Positions 3,799 to 55,061 of a stretch of 64,000 bases of DNA are shown here, in pieces. The notes under the pieces are model-generated. The model searched no databases and had not been told where the DNA came from. It saw only the letters and a program-made list of their open reading frames with translations. The position numbers and the translations under genes are program-made. Numbering within the stretch: position 1 is the first letter of the stretch; the number at the start of each line of letters is the position of its first letter. The DNA is from Blattabacterium cuenoti (GTDB lineage Bacteria; Bacteroidota; Bacteroidia; Flavobacteriales; Blattabacteriaceae): contig NZ_CP059203.1 in assembly GCF_014251955.1 (NCBI RefSeq), forward strand, positions 487,963 through 551,962, written 5' to 3'.

Positions 3799-4560
3799 TT
3801 ATGTAAATGATAAAATATATTCTTTATTTAGAAAAGAAATGTATTCTGTAGAAATTCCTTTTGGACACTCAATTTCACAAGCTTGAGTATTGGTACAACT
3901 CCCAAATCCTTCCTCATCCATTTTTTTTACCATATTTAATACACGGTTTTTTCTTTCTATTTTTCCTTGTGGAAGAAAAGCAAACTGTGTTACTTTTGCT
4001 GAAACAAATAACATAGCGGACCTATTTTTACATGCAGCAACACACGCTCCACATCCAATACATGTAGCCGCATCGAAAGCTTTATCTGCATCTTCTTTGG
4101 GAATAGGAATCATGTTTCCATCTATTGTTTTTCCAAATGTATTCACAGAAATAAATCCTCCTGATATAATAATTCTATCTAAAGATGATCTATCGACAAT
4201 AAGATCTTTAATGATAGGAAAAGGCTTTGCTCTCCAAGGTTCAATATATATAGTTTCTCCATTATGAAAATGACGCATGTGTAATTGACAAGTTGTCACT
4301 AAATCATCTGGACCATGAGCTCTTCCATTTATGTATAAAGAACACATTCCACAGATTCCTTCACGACAATCGTGATCGAATGATATAGGAGATTCTTTTT
4401 TCTCATATAATATTTGATGATTTAAAAGATCTAACATCTCTAGAAAAGAACTATTAGGAGAAAGATTATAAATTTTATAAGTTTTAAACTTACCCTTTTC
4501 TTTATTATTTTTTTGCCTCCATATTTTTAATGTAAAATTGAGTAATCCTTTCTTCATCAT
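3799..4560 (-). CDS. sdhB: Succinate dehydrogenase iron-sulfur subunit
   Basis: SdhB passes electrons from the flavoprotein to the membrane quinone site. The N-terminal plant-type ferredoxin domain holds the [2Fe-2S] ligands Cys65, Cys70, Cys73 and Cys91. The C-terminal domain holds CIGCGACVAAC (167-177), CTNTQAC (222-228) and Cys232, which bind the [4Fe-4S] and [3Fe-4S] clusters. All expected cysteines are present. The gene follows sdhA by 20 bases and is the last of the sdhC-sdhA-sdhB set, so co-transcription is likely. Confidence 0.97.
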   Translation of the reverse strand: MMKKGLLNFTLKIWRQKNNKEKGKFKTYKIYNLSPNSSFLEMLDLLNHQILYEKKESPISFDHDCREGICGMCSLYINGRAHGPDDLVTTCQLHMRHFHNGETIYIEPWRAKPFPIIKDLIVDRSSLDRIIISGGFISVNTFGKTIDGNMIPIPKEDADKAFDAATCIGCGACVAACKNRSAMLFVSAKVTQFAFLPQGKIERKNRVLNMVKKMDEEGFGSCTNTQACEIECPKGISTEYISFLNKEYILSFT

Positions 4561-4580
4561 ATTATTTATTTATGTCTTCT

Positions 4581-6629
4581 TTATTTATAAGAACGAGATT
4601 GCAATTTTACAAAATTAAAAGATAAGTTTTCTTTATGCATAATTTCTTCACTAAGAAGTTTTTCTTTTTGATATTCCCATATAGAAACATATTTATAATG
4701 AATATCGTCTCGTAAAGCTTCCCCTTCTTTTGTTTGATATTCCTCTCTAAAATGACTTCCACAAGATTCTTTTCTATTTAAAGCATCCATTGCTACTAAC
4801 TCTCCTAATTCTAAAAAATCTGCAACCCGTCCAGCTTTTTCTAATTCTAAATTTAATCCATCATTTATATTTCCAGGAACAAAAATATTTTTCCAAAATT
4901 CCTCACGGAGTTCTTGTATTTTTTTTATGGATTTTAATAATCCCGTATGATTTCTACTCATTCCAACATATTTCCACATGATTTTTCCAAGTTCTTTATG
5001 AAAAAAATCAACAGAAAGATCTCCATTATTATGAAGTAATCGTTTTATTCTATCTTTTACATTTTTTTCTGATTTATCAAATTCCTTATGTTCTGTAGAT
5101 ATGTTTTTTGTGGTATTAGAATTAGAAACATGTATTATATGAGATAAATAATCAGCTATAGTATATGGCAAAATAAAATACCCATCTGCTAATCCTTGCA
5201 TTAATGCAGATGCTCCAAGACGATTAGCTCCATGATCTGAAAAATTTGCTTCTCCTATAATATAACATCCTGTTATAGAAGACATTAAATTATAATCTAC
5301 CCATATCCCCCCCATAGTATAATGAACAGCAGGATAAATTCTCATGGGATTTTTATAAGGGTTTTGATTTGTTATTTTTTCATACATATGAAATAAATTT
5401 CCATATTTAGATTCTAAAACACTTTCTCCTAACTTTTTAATCTCTATGGAAGATGGGGTTTTGATTCCAAGTTCATTTGCTTTTTCTATTCCATATTGTT
5501 CTATAGAATAAGAAAAATCTAAAAATACACCTTCTTTCGTTTCATTATTCTCTATTCCCAACCCTTTATCACAACGTTCTTTAGCAGCACGTGATGCAAC
5601 ATCTCTTGGAACAAGATTTCCAAATGATGGATAACGTCTCTCAAGATAATAATCTCTGTCTTCTTCAAGAATTTCTTCAGGAGATTTATTCCCATTTCTT
5701 ATAGAAATGGAATCTTCTACTTTTTTTGGAACCCATATACGGCCATCATTCCTCAATGATTCAGACATTAATGTTAATTTAGATTGATAATTTCCATGAA
5801 CTGGAATACAAGTTGGATGTATTTGAGTATAACAAGGATTTGCAAAAAATCCCCCTTTTTTATGAACTTTCCAGATAGCACTAGCATTAGCTCCCATCGC
5901 ATTAGTAGATAAAAAAAACACATTTCCATAACCTCCAGATGCAATAACAATAGCATGAGCTGCATGACGTTCAATTTCTCCAGAAATTAGATTTCTAGCA
6001 ATAATACCTCTAGCAACTCCTTCTATAACAACTAAATCAAGCATTTCATGACGATTATACATTTTTATTCTTCCTTTTCCAATTTGTCTAGACATAGCTG
6101 AATAACATCCCAATAAAAGTTGTTGTCCAGTTTGTCCTTTGGCATAAAAAGTTCTAGAAACTTTAGTCCCTCCAAAAGACCTATTTTCAAGATAACCAGC
6201 ATAATCACGAGCGAATGGAACTCCTTGAGCAACACATTGATCTATAATATTAGAAGATATTTCTGCCAAACGATAAACATTTGCTTCTCTAGATCTATAA
6301 TCTCCACCTTTAATAGTGTCATAAAAAAGTTGAAAAACAGAATCATTATCTCCTTTGTAATTTTTAGAAGCATTAATTCCTCCTTGAGCAGCAACAGAGT
6401 GAGCTCTTCTAGGAGAATCTTGATAACAAAAAACTTTAACTTTATATCCTAGTTCAGCTAAAGAAGAAGAAGCAGATCCACCGGAAAGTCCGGTTCCAAT
6501 CACTATAATCTCTATATTAGATCTATTCTTAGGAGAGACTAATTTTAAAGTAGATTTATGATTGGTCCATTTTTTAGTGAGTTCTCCACTCGGTATTTTT
6601 GAGTTTAATTTCAAATAGTTTTGAATCAA
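4581..6629 (-). CDS. sdhA: Succinate dehydrogenase/fumarate reductase flavoprotein subunit
   Basis: SdhA oxidises succinate to fumarate using covalently bound FAD. The dinucleotide fold [10 protein letters not shown] starts at residue 45, and [10 protein letters not shown] carries the His77 expected to hold FAD. The active-site region HPTCIPVHG and the conserved [11 protein letters not shown] block are visible. The 682-residue length and the presence of a single cytochrome b neighbour fit the Bacteroidetes type B enzyme. Spacing is 24 bases from sdhC and 20 bases to sdhB. Confidence 0.97.
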
Positions 6630-6653
6630 ATTAAAAAATATTATAAATAACGA

Positions 6654-7385
6654 CTACCATTGAATGAAAAAAAACCAAATAGCTATGATAGAGAATCCAG
6701 AACAAATGAGCCAAAAATAAAAACAACCTAATTTTTGTATCCAATACAATCTTTTCTTATTAGTAGATAAACCTAATGACTGAAAAGATGATTGAAATCC
6801 ATGACTCAAATGAATTCCTAAAATAAAAAACGAAAAAACATATACAAATGTATATATAGGGTTTTTAAATAATGTAACAACCACATTATAATCCGAATTA
6901 TGATTCGAATATTTCATAGGAATCATAAAATTCATCAAGTGTAAAACTAAAAAACATAAAATTAAAAATCCTGTATAAATCATAGTACGGCTACCAAATG
7001 AAGAAATAGATTTTTGTACAGCATAATCTTCTTCCCCTTTCAATTTTCTATTTTTGATATGTAATCTTATTCCAAAAAGAATATGAACAATGAATCCTAA
7101 TGCAAGAACATATTCTAATATTCTAATGATGGCATTTCTTCTCATAAAAGAAACGGCTTCATTGAAGGCTTCTTCTCCGTAAAAAAGAAAAAGATTCACA
7201 CTCAAATGTAACGATAAAAAAGACATAAGAAAGATTCCCGTAATAGCCATAATTACTTTTTTACCTACAGAAGATTGAATCAAATGATATTGATTCATTC
7301 TAGTAGAAGAAGAAATAGAATTTCTATCTTCGTAAAGATATTTAAAAAAATATTTTAATTTTAATAAAAAATTTCTTTGTATCAT
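6654..7385 (-). CDS. sdhC: Succinate dehydrogenase cytochrome b subunit (type B, fused)
   Basis: This is the membrane anchor that holds haem b and reduces menaquinone. About five hydrophobic helices are visible, with helix-borne histidines such as SLHLSVNLFLF, FIVHILFGIRLH, LVLHLMNF and GIHLSHGFQSSFQSLG. One polypeptide does the work of SdhC plus SdhD, as expected for type B enzymes. The start codon overlaps the upstream desulfurase stop by one base. A later start at MNQYHLIQ (about residue 28) is also possible. Confidence 0.93.
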   Translation of the reverse strand: MIQRNFLLKLKYFFKYLYEDRNSISSSTRMNQYHLIQSSVGKKVIMAITGIFLMSFLSLHLSVNLFLFYGEEAFNEAVSFMRRNAIIRILEYVLALGFIVHILFGIRLHIKNRKLKGEEDYAVQKSISSFGSRTMIYTGFLILCFLVLHLMNFMIPMKYSNHNSDYNVVVTLFKNPIYTFVYVFSFFILGIHLSHGFQSSFQSLGLSTNKKRLYWIQKLGCFYFWLICSGFSIIAIWFFFIQW

Positions 7386-16083: not shown

Positions 16084-17136
16084 TTAAAATGGAATTTTAA
16101 TAATCAATTGATCATGATCATCAATATCAACTTTTTTTAATATTTTTCCATATACTATCGGAGCATATAATCCTTTCTTTAAAAAAAAACGACAAAAAAA
16201 AATTCTAGATTCATCCCAAATATTTTCTTTTATGAAACTTTCTAAAGTCATTTTACCTCCTTCTACAATTAAGGATAAAATTTTTTTTTTATATAAATGA
16301 TTTAATATATTTTTTATAATTTTTTTCTCAAAAGAGATCTGAATAAATTCTATGTTTTTCTGATTTTCTTTTTTTTTTTCTGTAAATACAATTGTCTGTT
16401 GTTTTCCGTTCAAAACAAAATAAGAAGGAGATATATTCAAATTTCTATCAAGAATAATTCTAATAGGATTATTCCCAAACCATTTTCTAACATTTAATTT
16501 TGGATTATCATTTAACACAGTATTTTTTCCTACCAAAACACTATCTTCTTCTGATCTCCATTTATGACTCAATTGTCTGGAATAAATTCCACTAATCCAA
16601 AAACGTTTCTTTTTTTTTTTTTTTCCTTTTTTTTTCAAAAAATCCATGAATCCATTCTCACTTTGTGCCCATTTTAATATAACATAAGGTCTATTTTTTT
16701 CATAAAAAGTAAAAAAACGTTTATTCAAAAAACGACATTGATCTGTTAAAACATTTTCTATAACTTCTATTCCATGTTCTTTTAATTTTTGAATTCCCAA
16801 TCCTTTTACTTTATGACAAGGATCTTGTACTCCTATTACAACTCTAGGAATATTACTTTTAATAATTAAATCTACGCAAGGAGGAGTTTTTCCAAAATGA
16901 ACACATGGTTCTAATGTAACATAAAGAGTTGAATCAAAAAATAAAGAAACATTATTGACCATATTAATAGCATTTACTTCTGCATGAGATTTTCCTTTTT
17001 GATAATGCCATCCTTCCGAAAGGATCAAACTATTTCTTTCTATCACACATCCTACCATAGGATTAGGAGATGTAGATCCTAATCCATTTTTAGCTAATTG
17101 AATGGCTCTTTTCATAAAAATTTCTTCATATTTCAT
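16084..17136 (-). CDS. ribD: Bifunctional riboflavin deaminase/reductase RibD
   Basis: RibD performs the second and third steps of riboflavin synthesis. The N-terminal deaminase domain has HAEVNAI (His51, Glu53) and PCVHFGKTPPC (Cys78, Cys87) for zinc. The C-terminal reductase domain starts near residue 150 (RPYVILKWAQSENGF) and ends with LIVEGGKMTLESFI. The 350 residues are typical. A lysine-rich stretch near residues 170-180 (KKGKKKKKKRFW) is encoded by an A15 run and an A9 run, which are in frame here. Confidence 0.95.
   Translation of the reverse strand: MKYEEIFMKRAIQLAKNGLGSTSPNPMVGCVIERNSLILSEGWHYQKGKSHAEVNAINMVNNVSLFFDSTLYVTLEPCVHFGKTPPCVDLIIKSNIPRVVIGVQDPCHKVKGLGIQKLKEHGIEVIENVLTDQCRFLNKRFFTFYEKNRPYVILKWAQSENGFMDFLKKKGKKKKKKRFWISGIYSRQLSHKWRSEEDSVLVGKNTVLNDNPKLNVRKWFGNNPIRIILDRNLNISPSYFVLNGKQQTIVFTEKKKENQKNIEFIQISFEKKIIKNILNHLYKKKILSLIVEGGKMTLESFIKENIWDESRIFFCRFFLKKGLYAPIVYGKILKKVDIDDHDQLIIKIPF
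16610..16624. repeat. A15 homopolymer in ribD (T15 on + strand)
   Basis: Fifteen T bases in a row on the plus strand give A15 on the ribD coding strand, the longest homopolymer noticed. It is read in frame as a lysine run, with a further A9 only two bases beyond. Polymerase slippage here is expected to make a share of frameshifted mRNAs. Confidence 0.95.
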
Positions 17137-28786: not shown

Positions 28787-29375
28787 ATGAATAAAAAAAA
28801 ATTAAGAATCAAATATTTATTTGATAGAAAATCTCTTTCTAAAAAAGAAATTTTAAAAAAAAGTTATGACATTTTTTTTAAATTAAAAAAACTTTTTATA
28901 TGGAACAAAAAATATTATCATATTTTCTTACCTATACAGAAACATAACGAAATTAATACATTTATTATTATCAATTTTCTTTTAAAAAAAAAAATGTGTT
29001 ACCGTTCCTCATTCAAATTTTTATAAATTATCCATAGATAATTGTTTTTTTAATGAAAAAACTTTATTAATAGAAAATCAATATGGAATTCTAGAACCTA
29101 AAAAAAAACATATAATCCCTCCTCACCTTATTGAGGTAATATTTATTCCATTATTAATTTTTGATTTTAAAGGATATCGTATTGGTTATGGAAAAGGATT
29201 TTATGATAGATTTCTCATGTTATGTAAAAAAAATGTTATCAAAATAGGATTAAGTTTTTTTTCTCCTATAAAAAGAATTGAACCTATACATAAAAATGAT
29301 CTCATTCTAGATATAGGGATCACTGTCAATCAAGTTTTATTTTTTAATAAAAAATTCAAGAAAAAAACACTTTAA
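28787..29375 (+). pseudogene. 5-formyltetrahydrofolate cyclo-ligase, frameshifted in A11 tract
   Basis: The enzyme turns 5-formyl-THF back into 5,10-methenyl-THF. Frame one gives the N-terminus (MNKKKLRIKYLFDRKSLSKK) and stops at 29026. After the A11 run at 28984 the other frame continues with VPHSNFYKLSIDN, LLIENQYGILEP and the family signature RIGYGKGFYDRFL, ending at 29375. Removing one A restores a full-length protein of the usual size. It is a recent pseudogene, a sequencing error, or a gene rescued by slippage. Its 3' end overlaps convergent rseP by 20 bases. Confidence 0.88.
28984..28994. repeat. A11 homopolymer at the frame break of the folate cyclo-ligase
   Basis: Eleven A bases lie exactly where the two coding frames must join. 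Ten A bases would restore the frame. It is a candidate transcriptional slippage site. Confidence 0.95.
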
Positions 29376-44043: not shown

Positions 44044-45477
44044 ATGAATGATAGGATAGAAAAATATTCAATTAAAGAATTATTAGATAAAGAAAAAATT
44101 TTTTTAAATAAAACAGTTTTAGTTGAAGGTTGGATTCGTTCTTTTCGTAATTTTATTTTCATATCATTAAATGATGGATCTACAATTAAAAATCTTCAAA
44201 TTATTTTATCCAAAAATTTGAAAAAAAATTTTTTAAAAAAAATAACAATTGGAACTTCTATTCAAGTTATAGGGATCATAACACAAAGCATAGGAAAAAA
44301 ACAAAATATAGAATTGCAATCTATAAAGATCACTATCTATGGAGGAGTAGATTCTAAAAATTTTCAAAAATCTATTTTACAGCCAAAACAACATAGTTTG
44401 GAAACATTGCGTAAACAAGCACACTTACGTTTCCGGACAAGTATTTTTAGCAGTATTATGCGTATCCGTCATCATATAGCTTTTTTTATCCATAAGTATT
44501 TTCATGAACATGGTTTCTTTTATATAAATACTCCTATTATAACTACTTCAAATTCTGAAGGTTCTGGAGAAATGTTTCAAGTTACTACTATGGATTTAAA
44601 AAATATTCCCTATGATATAAAAGGGAATATTGATTATACAAAAGATTTTTTTAAATGCCAAACCTATCTTAGTGTATCTGGACAATTAGAAGCAGAAACA
44701 GCTTCTTTAGCATTAGGAAAAGTGTATACTTTTGGTCCTGCTTTTCGTGCAGAAAATTCTAACACTTCACGGCATTTGTCAGAATTTTGGATGATAGAAC
44801 CAGAAATGGCTTTTTATCATTTAGAAGAAAATATGAATTTAGCAGAGGATTTTTTAAAATCTATCATTCAATATATTATTGATTTTTGTATAGATGACCT
44901 ATCATTTTTAAATGAACACATCAAAAAATGGAATAATAATAGAAAAAAAGAATCTTCTCTTTTAGAAAAATTGAAATTTATATTCAAATATCCATTTAAA
45001 CGAATTAGTTATACTGAAGCAATAAACATTCTTCAAAAGGAAAAAAAAAAAAATTTTTTTTATCCAGTTCTTTGGGGAATTGATTTACAATCGGAACATG
45101 AACAATATCTCGTTAATGAATATTTTCAATCACCTGTAATTATATTTGATTATCCTTCTTGTATAAAAGCTTTTTATATGCGCATAAACGAGGATAAAAA
45201 AACAGTTAGAGCTATGGATATTTTGTTTCCAGAAATAGGAGAAATTATAGGAGGATCTCAAAGGGAAGAACGTTATGATATGTTATTAAATCGTATAAAA
45301 GATACGAAAATAGATGAGAGTAAACTTTGGTGGTATTTAGATACACGTCGTTTTGGTTCTGTTCCTCATAGTGGATTCGGATTAGGATTTGATCGTTTAG
45401 TTCAATTCATTACAGGAATGAAAAATATTCGTGATGTGATTCCTTTTCCAAGGACACCTAATAATGCAGAATTTTAA
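44044..45477 (+). CDS. asnS: Asparaginyl-tRNA synthetase
   Basis: AsnRS charges tRNA-Asn. The OB-fold anticodon domain (about residues 22-110) precedes class II motif 2 (FRAENSNTSRHLSEFWMIEPEMAF) and motif 3 (GFGLGFDRLVQFITG). It has 477 residues and starts directly after frr. The coding strand carries an in-frame A13 run at 45041. Confidence 0.96.
   Translation: MNDRIEKYSIKELLDKEKIFLNKTVLVEGWIRSFRNFIFISLNDGSTIKNLQIILSKNLKKNFLKKITIGTSIQVIGIITQSIGKKQNIELQSIKITIYGGVDSKNFQKSILQPKQHSLETLRKQAHLRFRTSIFSSIMRIRHHIAFFIHKYFHEHGFFYINTPIITTSNSEGSGEMFQVTTMDLKNIPYDIKGNIDYTKDFFKCQTYLSVSGQLEAETASLALGKVYTFGPAFRAENSNTSRHLSEFWMIEPEMAFYHLEENMNLAEDFLKSIIQYIIDFCIDDLSFLNEHIKKWNNNRKKESSLLEKLKFIFKYPFKRISYTEAINILQKEKKKNFFYPVLWGIDLQSEHEQYLVNEYFQSPVIIFDYPSCIKAFYMRINEDKKTVRAMDILFPEIGEIIGGSQREERYDMLLNRIKDTKIDESKLWWYLDTRRFGSVPHSGFGLGFDRLVQFITGMKNIRDVIPFPRTPNNAEF
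45041..45053. repeat. A13 homopolymer inside asnS
   Basis: Thirteen A bases, followed at once by eight T bases, encode the lysine-rich KEKKKNFFYP in frame. The tract is as long as the one that breaks menG. Confidence 0.95.
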
Positions 45478-54327: not shown

Positions 54328-55061
54328 ATGAACAAAGATCCTATTTTTTCAAAGGAAAAAGAATTAACGAAAATGTTTGACGCTATTTCCTATAAATATG
54401 ATTTGATTAATCATATTTTGTCTTTTGGAATAGATTTTTTATGGAGAAGAAAAGCTGTACATCTACTTAGTCAGATGACTGTAAAAAAAAAAAAATATTA
54501 GATATAGCTACTGGAACTGGAGACTTGGCGATCCTACTTGCTAAAAAATTTTACGATACCAATGTTATTGGATTGGATCCATCTGATAAAATGCTCAAAA
54601 TAGCTAAAGAAAAAATAAAAAATAATTTTCTGGAAAAAAAAGTTAAAGTTATTCAAGGATATTCACAAAAAATTCCATTTGAAAATAATACTTTTGACGT
54701 AGTGACTATTGCATTTGGATTAAGAAATTTTCAGTCTTTTCATCTTTCTTTTAAAGAAATATATAGAATTCTTAACCCTTTAGGAATTTTAGAAATTATG
54801 GAATTTTCCAATCCTTCAAATATTTACGTAAAAGAATTTTACCATTTTTATTCTCATTTTATTTTGCCTAAAATAGGAAATTTTTTATCTAAAAATCATT
54901 TTGCCTATAACTATTTAGAAAAATCTATTAAATCTTTTTCTTATTCCTATTACGGAAAAAAAATGAAAAAATTCTTAAAATATCACAGATTTAAAACTAT
55001 TTATACAAAAGAATTAACATGTGGAATTGTATCTATTTATTTATCAAAAAAAATAGTTTAA
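54328..55061 (+). pseudogene. ubiE: Demethylmenaquinone methyltransferase (menG/ubiE), frameshifted in A13 tract
   Basis: This SAM enzyme performs the last step of menaquinone synthesis. Frame one gives MNKDPIFSKEKELTKMFDAI, NHILSFGIDFLWR and then reaches the A13 run at 54483 and a stop. The other frame continues with LDIATGTGDLAILL (SAM motif I), FDVVTIAFGLRNF and LEIMEFSNPS to the end at 55061. Adding one A restores a full-length, normal-size enzyme. The rest of the gene is undamaged. Since SDH here needs menaquinone, loss would be costly; slippage rescue or a sequencing error are real alternatives. Confidence 0.9.
54483..54495. repeat. A13 homopolymer at the menG frame break
   Basis: Thirteen A bases lie exactly where the two menG frames must join. 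Fourteen A bases would put the SAM-motif frame in phase with the start codon. Confidence 0.95.

What the first reader, a model, noticed from the sequence alone, without database searches (positions are those of the whole stretch)
54328..55061. menG/ubiE is split at an A13 tract and may depend on polymerase slippage
The N-terminal and SAM-binding halves sit in different frames and join exactly at A13 (54483-54495). One added A restores a full-length enzyme, and no other damage is visible. Poly(A) slippage rescue has been reported in Buchnera and Blochmannia. The respiratory chain here (SDH) would need menaquinone, so a truly dead gene would be surprising.
Basis: partly seen in the sequence, partly recalled or inferred. 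Interest (0 to 1): 0.75.

Follow-up and report, generated by a model that had tools for sequence, protein, structure and literature searches.

The report
Frame-broken menG at a poly-A tract
In a cockroach symbiont, a vitamin-K (menaquinone) gene is cut in two by a run of 13 adenines that is one letter short; the same spot is broken in seven of 49 related species while the rest of the gene stays healthy, so the cell probably repairs the message by slippage on the run, as already known for some genes of aphid and ant symbionts.

Summary
Confirmed. The window lies in a 639-kb Blattabacterium genome. menG/ubiE (54328-55061) is split exactly at A13 (54483-54495), one nucleotide short of frame, with no other lesion and no second menG; menA, menB and menD are intact. 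Comparison with 48 congeners turns the oddity into a pattern. menG is broken at this same loop in 7 of 49 species (at least 6 changes on the tree), including the sister G037, with no other damage. A second gene in this window, 5-formyl-THF cyclo-ligase (fau, A11), is broken at one site in 9/49, including all of a four-species clade; murF in 4/49. Coding A-runs of 10 or more are broken in 27/584 cases versus 3/5047 for A7-9, and far more often in menG and fau than in other genes with equally long runs (6/507), which argues against assembly error. dN/dS downstream of the break stays low (menG 0.35, fau 0.08), and no start codon permits separate translation of the C half. Slippage rescue, chiefly by RNA polymerase, is the best explanation; no transcript was seen. 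The kind is known from Buchnera and Blochmannia; its recurrence in Blattabacterium is not reported in the papers I could read.

The parts
54328..54501 (+). menG N-terminal part, 57 aa, ends at TAG just after the A run
   Evidence: PF01209 30.6 bits, TIGR01934 40 bits
54483..54495 (+). A13 tract, the frame junction; codes a lysine-rich loop just before SAM motif I; one nucleotide short of frame
   Evidence: homologous loop carries a 3-residue insert in yeast Coq5 4obw
54501..54524 (+). SAM-binding motif I (DIATGTGD), the first conserved element of the C part
54471..55061 (+). menG C-terminal part in the other frame; open from 54471; no ATG/GTG/TTG before motif I (first is TTG 54525)
   Evidence: PF01209 123.8 bits, TIGR01934 159.2 bits over cut-off 158.35
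28787..29026 (+). fau (5-formyltetrahydrofolate cyclo-ligase) N part, second frame-broken gene of the window
   Evidence: (TIGR02727 23 bits)
28984..28994 (+). A11 tract at the fau frame junction (here one nucleotide long, or two short)
28986..29375 (+). fau C part in the other frame
   Evidence: TIGR02727 79.1 bits; PF01812 59.7 bits
16610..16624 (-). control: T15 (A15 on the coding strand) inside a ribD-like deaminase/reductase gene, in frame
45041..45053 (+). control: A13 inside asnS, in frame

Best explanation
menG is a working gene whose DNA is one nucleotide out of frame at a poly-A tract. Shown: the tract codes a loop of variable length before SAM motif I; the break is the only lesion; the same loop breaks repeatedly in the genus; both parts remain under purifying selection. 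Inferred: RNA polymerase slips on the tract and makes a mixed mRNA pool, a fraction of which carries one more A and is translated into full-length MenG; that reduced amount suffices for menaquinone synthesis. Long A runs arise by AT-biased mutation in loops that tolerate lysine, gain and lose As by replication slippage, and once they reach about 10 As a frame break in a gene of low demand costs little, because slippage makes up for it. Likelier type of break: one nucleotide short, matching polymerase that mostly adds bases at A/T runs.
For: Single lesion in each of 7 menG, 9 fau and 4 murF broken copies, whereas decayed copies in the same genomes carry 4 to 23 lesions, e.g. metE in G041 with 7 frameshifts and 16 stops while its sister G001 is intact. 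dN/dS downstream of the break: menG G000-G037 0.35 (95% 0.20-0.66); fau 0.08 (0-0.24) for G001-G041, both broken, inside the range of intact copies and neighbouring genes. fau is broken in all of the clade G043,(G047,(G041,G001)), so the state outlived speciations. Break rate jumps at A10 or longer: 27/584 versus 3/5047. Clean breaks are 22 short to 6 long, decayed copies 6 to 9, p=0.019; in Buchnera transcripts 151 of 157 insertions but only 16 of 57 deletions were in homopolymers (PMC5574713). menA, menB, menD intact. No start codon before motif I in the C frame in any of 7. Precedent: 12-50% corrected transcripts in aphid and ant symbionts (PMC5009743).
Against: No transcript or peptide was seen. 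[quoted passage not shown] The fau copies of G000, G027 and G047 and menG of G047 are of the other type, which insertion slippage mends only by adding two. Pairwise dN/dS of menG includes time before the break; only the fau clade and the G000-G037 pair speak for time after it. Ribosomal slippage fits the one-short breaks equally well.
Confidence: 0.7

Rival explanations
1. Ribosomal rescue: the ribosome slips -1 on the A run (A AAA AAA) and reads into the C frame; the mRNA stays out of frame.
For: Most clean breaks are one nucleotide short, 22 of 28, which a -1 slip mends; the run holds slippery heptamers and the zero-frame stop lies 3 nt behind it.
Against: No convincing downstream structure: z -1.42, 17 of 200 shuffles fold as well. 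Breaks of the opposite type also persist (fau in G000, G027, G047). Not conserved as a programmed site: 42 of 49 species are in frame.
Confidence: 0.13
2. Assembly or sequencing error in a long homopolymer; the real gene is in frame.
For: A13 is a hard tract; the read type behind these assemblies is unknown to me.
Against: Errors should follow run length, not gene: runs of 10 or more are broken in menG 7/26 and fau 9/20 but 6/507 in other genes (p 4e-7 and 9e-11), and 0/21 in other genes at A13-A15. A13 in asnS and a 15-run in ribD of this genome are in frame. The sister G037 is broken too, at a different A11 linker; several breaks lie at A9-A10.
Confidence: 0.08
3. Recent loss: menG is dead in this lineage and decay has not begun to show.
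For: At least 6 changes on the tree could be 6 recent deaths; other men genes of some strains are reported missing (menE step, PMC9603385).
Against: Sister pair G000/G037 both broken with dS 0.26 and no further lesion in about 240 codons each, while a dead metE collected 23 interior lesions in 762 codons along one branch of a pair with dS about 0.15. menA, menB, menD and SDH intact. fau shows that the state can last through a clade.
Confidence: 0.06
4. DNA-level switching: cells in the host differ in tract length, and the assembly shows the commonest, out-of-frame length; function comes from in-frame cells.
For: Run length varies greatly among species at this site.
Against: Obligate clonal symbiont; four related species are all out of frame in fau, with 10 to 12 As.
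Confidence: 0.03

Closest known systems
Poly(A)-tract frameshifted genes of Buchnera and Blochmannia rescued by transcriptional slippage (Tamas et al. 2008, not held; summarised in PMC5009743 and PMC3017870)
   Same: Obligate AT-rich insect symbiont; single indel in a long A run; gene otherwise intact; proposed mixed mRNA pool
   Different: Different phylum (Bacteroidota); rescue not measured here; the same loop breaks in 7 of 49 species, and three genes act as hot spots
Ancient frameshifts maintained by selection in Blochmannia homopolymers (Wernegreen et al. 2010, known to me by title from the reference list of PMC4389277; not read)
   Same: Out-of-frame state kept through speciations under purifying selection, as in the fau clade here
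   Different: Here shown for fau in a four-species clade; for menG only a sister pair
dnaX-type -1 ribosomal frameshifting on A AAA AAG
   Same: Slippery A run, -1 shift would join the frames
   Different: No clear stimulator, not conserved, zero-frame product is a 57-aa fragment with no evident use

Membership tests
MenG/UbiE methyltransferase (TIGR01934, PF01209) | Score over the curated cut-off | tested here: met
   C part alone 159.2 bits over 158.35 in TIGR01934; both parts over 20.1 in PF01209
MenG/UbiE methyltransferase (TIGR01934, PF01209) | SAM motif I and N-terminal region in order | tested here: met
   they lie in two frames
MenG/UbiE methyltransferase (TIGR01934, PF01209) | Methylates demethylmenaquinone | not testable with these tools
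   context only: menA, menB, menD intact
Slippage-rescued frameshifted symbiont gene | Single frame-breaking indel in a long A or T run | tested here: met
   A13, one short
Slippage-rescued frameshifted symbiont gene | No other decay | tested here: met
   all 7 menG copies (two 'stop' events lie upstream of the true start)
Slippage-rescued frameshifted symbiont gene | Purifying selection while broken | tested here: met
   G000-G037 C part dN/dS 0.35 (0.20-0.66); fau clade 0.08-0.31; assumes that the break predates the split
Slippage-rescued frameshifted symbiont gene | Mixed mRNA pool with in-frame molecules | not testable with these tools
   no RNA data
Slippage-rescued frameshifted symbiont gene | Full-length protein | not testable with these tools
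   no protein data
Programmed -1 ribosomal frameshifting | Slippery heptamer at the junction | tested here: met
   A13 contains A AAA AAA
Programmed -1 ribosomal frameshifting | Downstream stimulatory structure | tested here: inconclusive
   z -1.42
Programmed -1 ribosomal frameshifting | Frame arrangement conserved among relatives | tested here: not met
   42 of 49 in frame

The most novel reading that the evidence does not exclude
In Blattabacterium, expression-level slippage has made the DNA reading frame of certain loop-coding A runs nearly neutral: above about 10 As the frame of fau drifts (9 of 20 runs of that length out of frame, against two thirds expected with no selection on frame), and menG and murF follow, so that genes pass in and out of frame through speciations while the proteins stay under selection.
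Probability: 0.4. Interest if true: 0.7.

Novelty: new member of a known kind. Interest (0 to 1): 0.5.

Why it matters
Annotation pipelines call such genes dead and metabolic models then lose a step (here the last of menaquinone synthesis). The 49 genomes give a natural experiment: the same loop in and out of frame many times, which allows tests of what decides tolerance (run length, type of break, gene dosage) that single cases in Buchnera and Blochmannia could not give.

Tried and rejected
A second menG elsewhere: rejected, only a PrmC-like hit. Two separately translated halves: rejected for all 7 copies, no start codon before motif I. Loss of mismatch repair through MutS as the cause of tract instability: an 884-aa frame with a MutS_V match is intact (mutL not tested). 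My first ORF-only census mixed in antisense ORFs and start extensions; replaced by a frameshift-aware alignment. tblastn joins misread the frame of fau in G027, G037 and G047, corrected by the same alignment. The scan of named genomes gave only four named Blattabacterium loci. Tamas 2008, Patino-Navarrete 2013 and Kinjo 2018 are not in the library, so a report on Blattabacterium in them cannot be excluded. The first attempt to submit lacked fields.

Full report
What is there. The window is G000:C1:487963-551962 of a one-contig genome of 639,415 bases. It belongs to the genus Blattabacterium: contigs of congeners have the same lengths as named B. cuenoti chromosomes (NZ_CP059207 621,526 = G040; NZ_CP059205 628,453 = G007; NZ_CP059204 511,065 = G015; NZ_CP059221 570,862 = G010). 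menG/ubiE runs from ATG 54328; its N frame ends at TAG 54499-54501; the C frame carries SAM motif I at 54501 and runs to 55061. The junction is A13, 54483-54495. Both parts hit the same families. There is no other lesion.

Is it needed? menA, menB and menD are present as full-length matches without stops; SDH-like genes lie at 3799-7385 of the window (named from the translations). Blattabacterium is described as using menaquinone (PMC2768785), and the menaquinone pathway as depending on the symbiont (PMC9603385). No second menG exists in the assembly.

The same loop breaks again and again. In 49 congeners, including this one, menG is present in all and split in 7: G000, G005, G031, G032, G037, G043 (one nucleotide short) and G047 (two short, in two neighbouring runs). 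On a seven-gene tree the minimum is 6 changes; G000 and G037 are sisters. The loop precedes SAM motif I, is rich in lysine and varies in length; yeast Coq5 (4obw) has three extra residues there. So the tract sits where length hardly matters.

Not only menG. In two syntenic 20-kb stretches of every genome I aligned about 32 real genes with a frameshift-aware program. fau (5-formyl-THF cyclo-ligase) is broken at one loop in 9 of 49, murF in 4 of 49 at two loops, all other genes in 0 to 2 by a single tract break. G000 itself has both menG and fau broken, so the window holds two cases. All four members of the clade G043,(G047,(G041,G001)) have fau out of frame, by parsimony one old break with a later change in G047.

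Dependence on run length and gene. Leaving out decayed copies, A-runs of 10 or more in coding sequence are broken in 27 of 584 cases and A7-9 in 3 of 5047 (p about 5e-24). One of the 27, menG in G046, is a compensated pair of shifts rather than a break. At runs of 10 or more, menG is broken in 7/26 (that case left out), fau in 9/20, murF in 4/30, other genes in 6/507. Equal run length with a very different outcome argues against sequencing error and for gene-specific tolerance. These counts are not phylogenetically independent.

Selection. Downstream of the break dN/dS (NG86, codon bootstrap) is 0.35 (0.20-0.66) for menG G000-G037, 0.08 (0-0.24), 0.23 and 0.31 for fau pairs within the broken clade, the same range as intact pairs and neighbouring genes. 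Truly decayed copies look different: 4 to 23 interior lesions, for example metE in G041, whose sister G001 has an intact copy. By that yardstick the broken menG and fau copies should have decayed visibly if they were dead.

Mechanism. The C part cannot be translated on its own: in all 7 menG copies the C frame has no ATG, GTG or TTG between its upstream stop and motif I. Frames must therefore be joined by slippage on the run, in RNA polymerase or in the ribosome. Clean breaks are mostly one nucleotide short (22 of 28), in decayed copies 6 of 15 (p=0.019; small numbers). Buchnera RNA polymerase mostly adds bases in A/T runs (PMC5574713), which would mend just this type, though the same study saw no restored frame. 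A -1 ribosomal slip would mend it as well; there is no strong downstream structure, and breaks of the other type persist in fau. I put transcriptional slippage at 0.70 and ribosomal slippage at 0.13.

Known or new. Frameshifted genes in homopolymers, counted as intact because of slippage, are standard in Blochmannia (4 to 8 per genome, PMC4389277, PMC3017870), with 12-50% corrected transcripts measured in aphid and ant symbionts (PMC5009743). Full-text searches for Blattabacterium with slippage or frameshift found only papers that mention it in passing, but key Blattabacterium papers are not held. PMC6039017 lists essential-looking genes such as dnaN, gltX, atpG and metG as pseudogenes in two strains; these may be of the same kind (inference, not checked). 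So this is a new member of a known kind, with an unusually rich comparative record.

Noticed in passing
window 28787-29375: Second frame-broken gene, 5-formyltetrahydrofolate cyclo-ligase, at A11 28984-28994; 9 of 49 congeners are broken at the same loop.
   Followed up: yes
L083, L057, L066, L069 (murF region): murF, an essential cell-wall gene, is out of frame at A16, A11, A13 and A11 in G003, G026, G035 and G038 with no other lesion.
   Followed up: partly
L077 (menG of G046): menG of G046 seems to carry two compensating frameshifts about 29 residues apart (residues 104 and 133), giving a stretch read in another frame.
   Followed up: no
L072 (metE of G041): metE is heavily decayed in G041 (7 frameshifts, 16 stops) although intact in its sister G001; a useful yardstick for the pace of decay.
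   Followed up: partly
L062, L212 (G031); L063, L213 (G032): G031 has single-tract breaks in a UvrD-like helicase (A11), a MenH-like hydrolase (A12) and menG; G032 in folP (A11), an MgtE-like gene (A10) and menG. Breaks may cluster in certain genomes.
   Followed up: no
window 16610-16624 and 45041-45053: Runs of 15 and 13 in ribD-like and asnS genes are in frame, so long runs alone do not break a gene.
   Followed up: partly
L052 (G021), region of tpiA: A stretch next to tpiA reads N in the held sequence, so tpiA could not be scored there.
   Followed up: no
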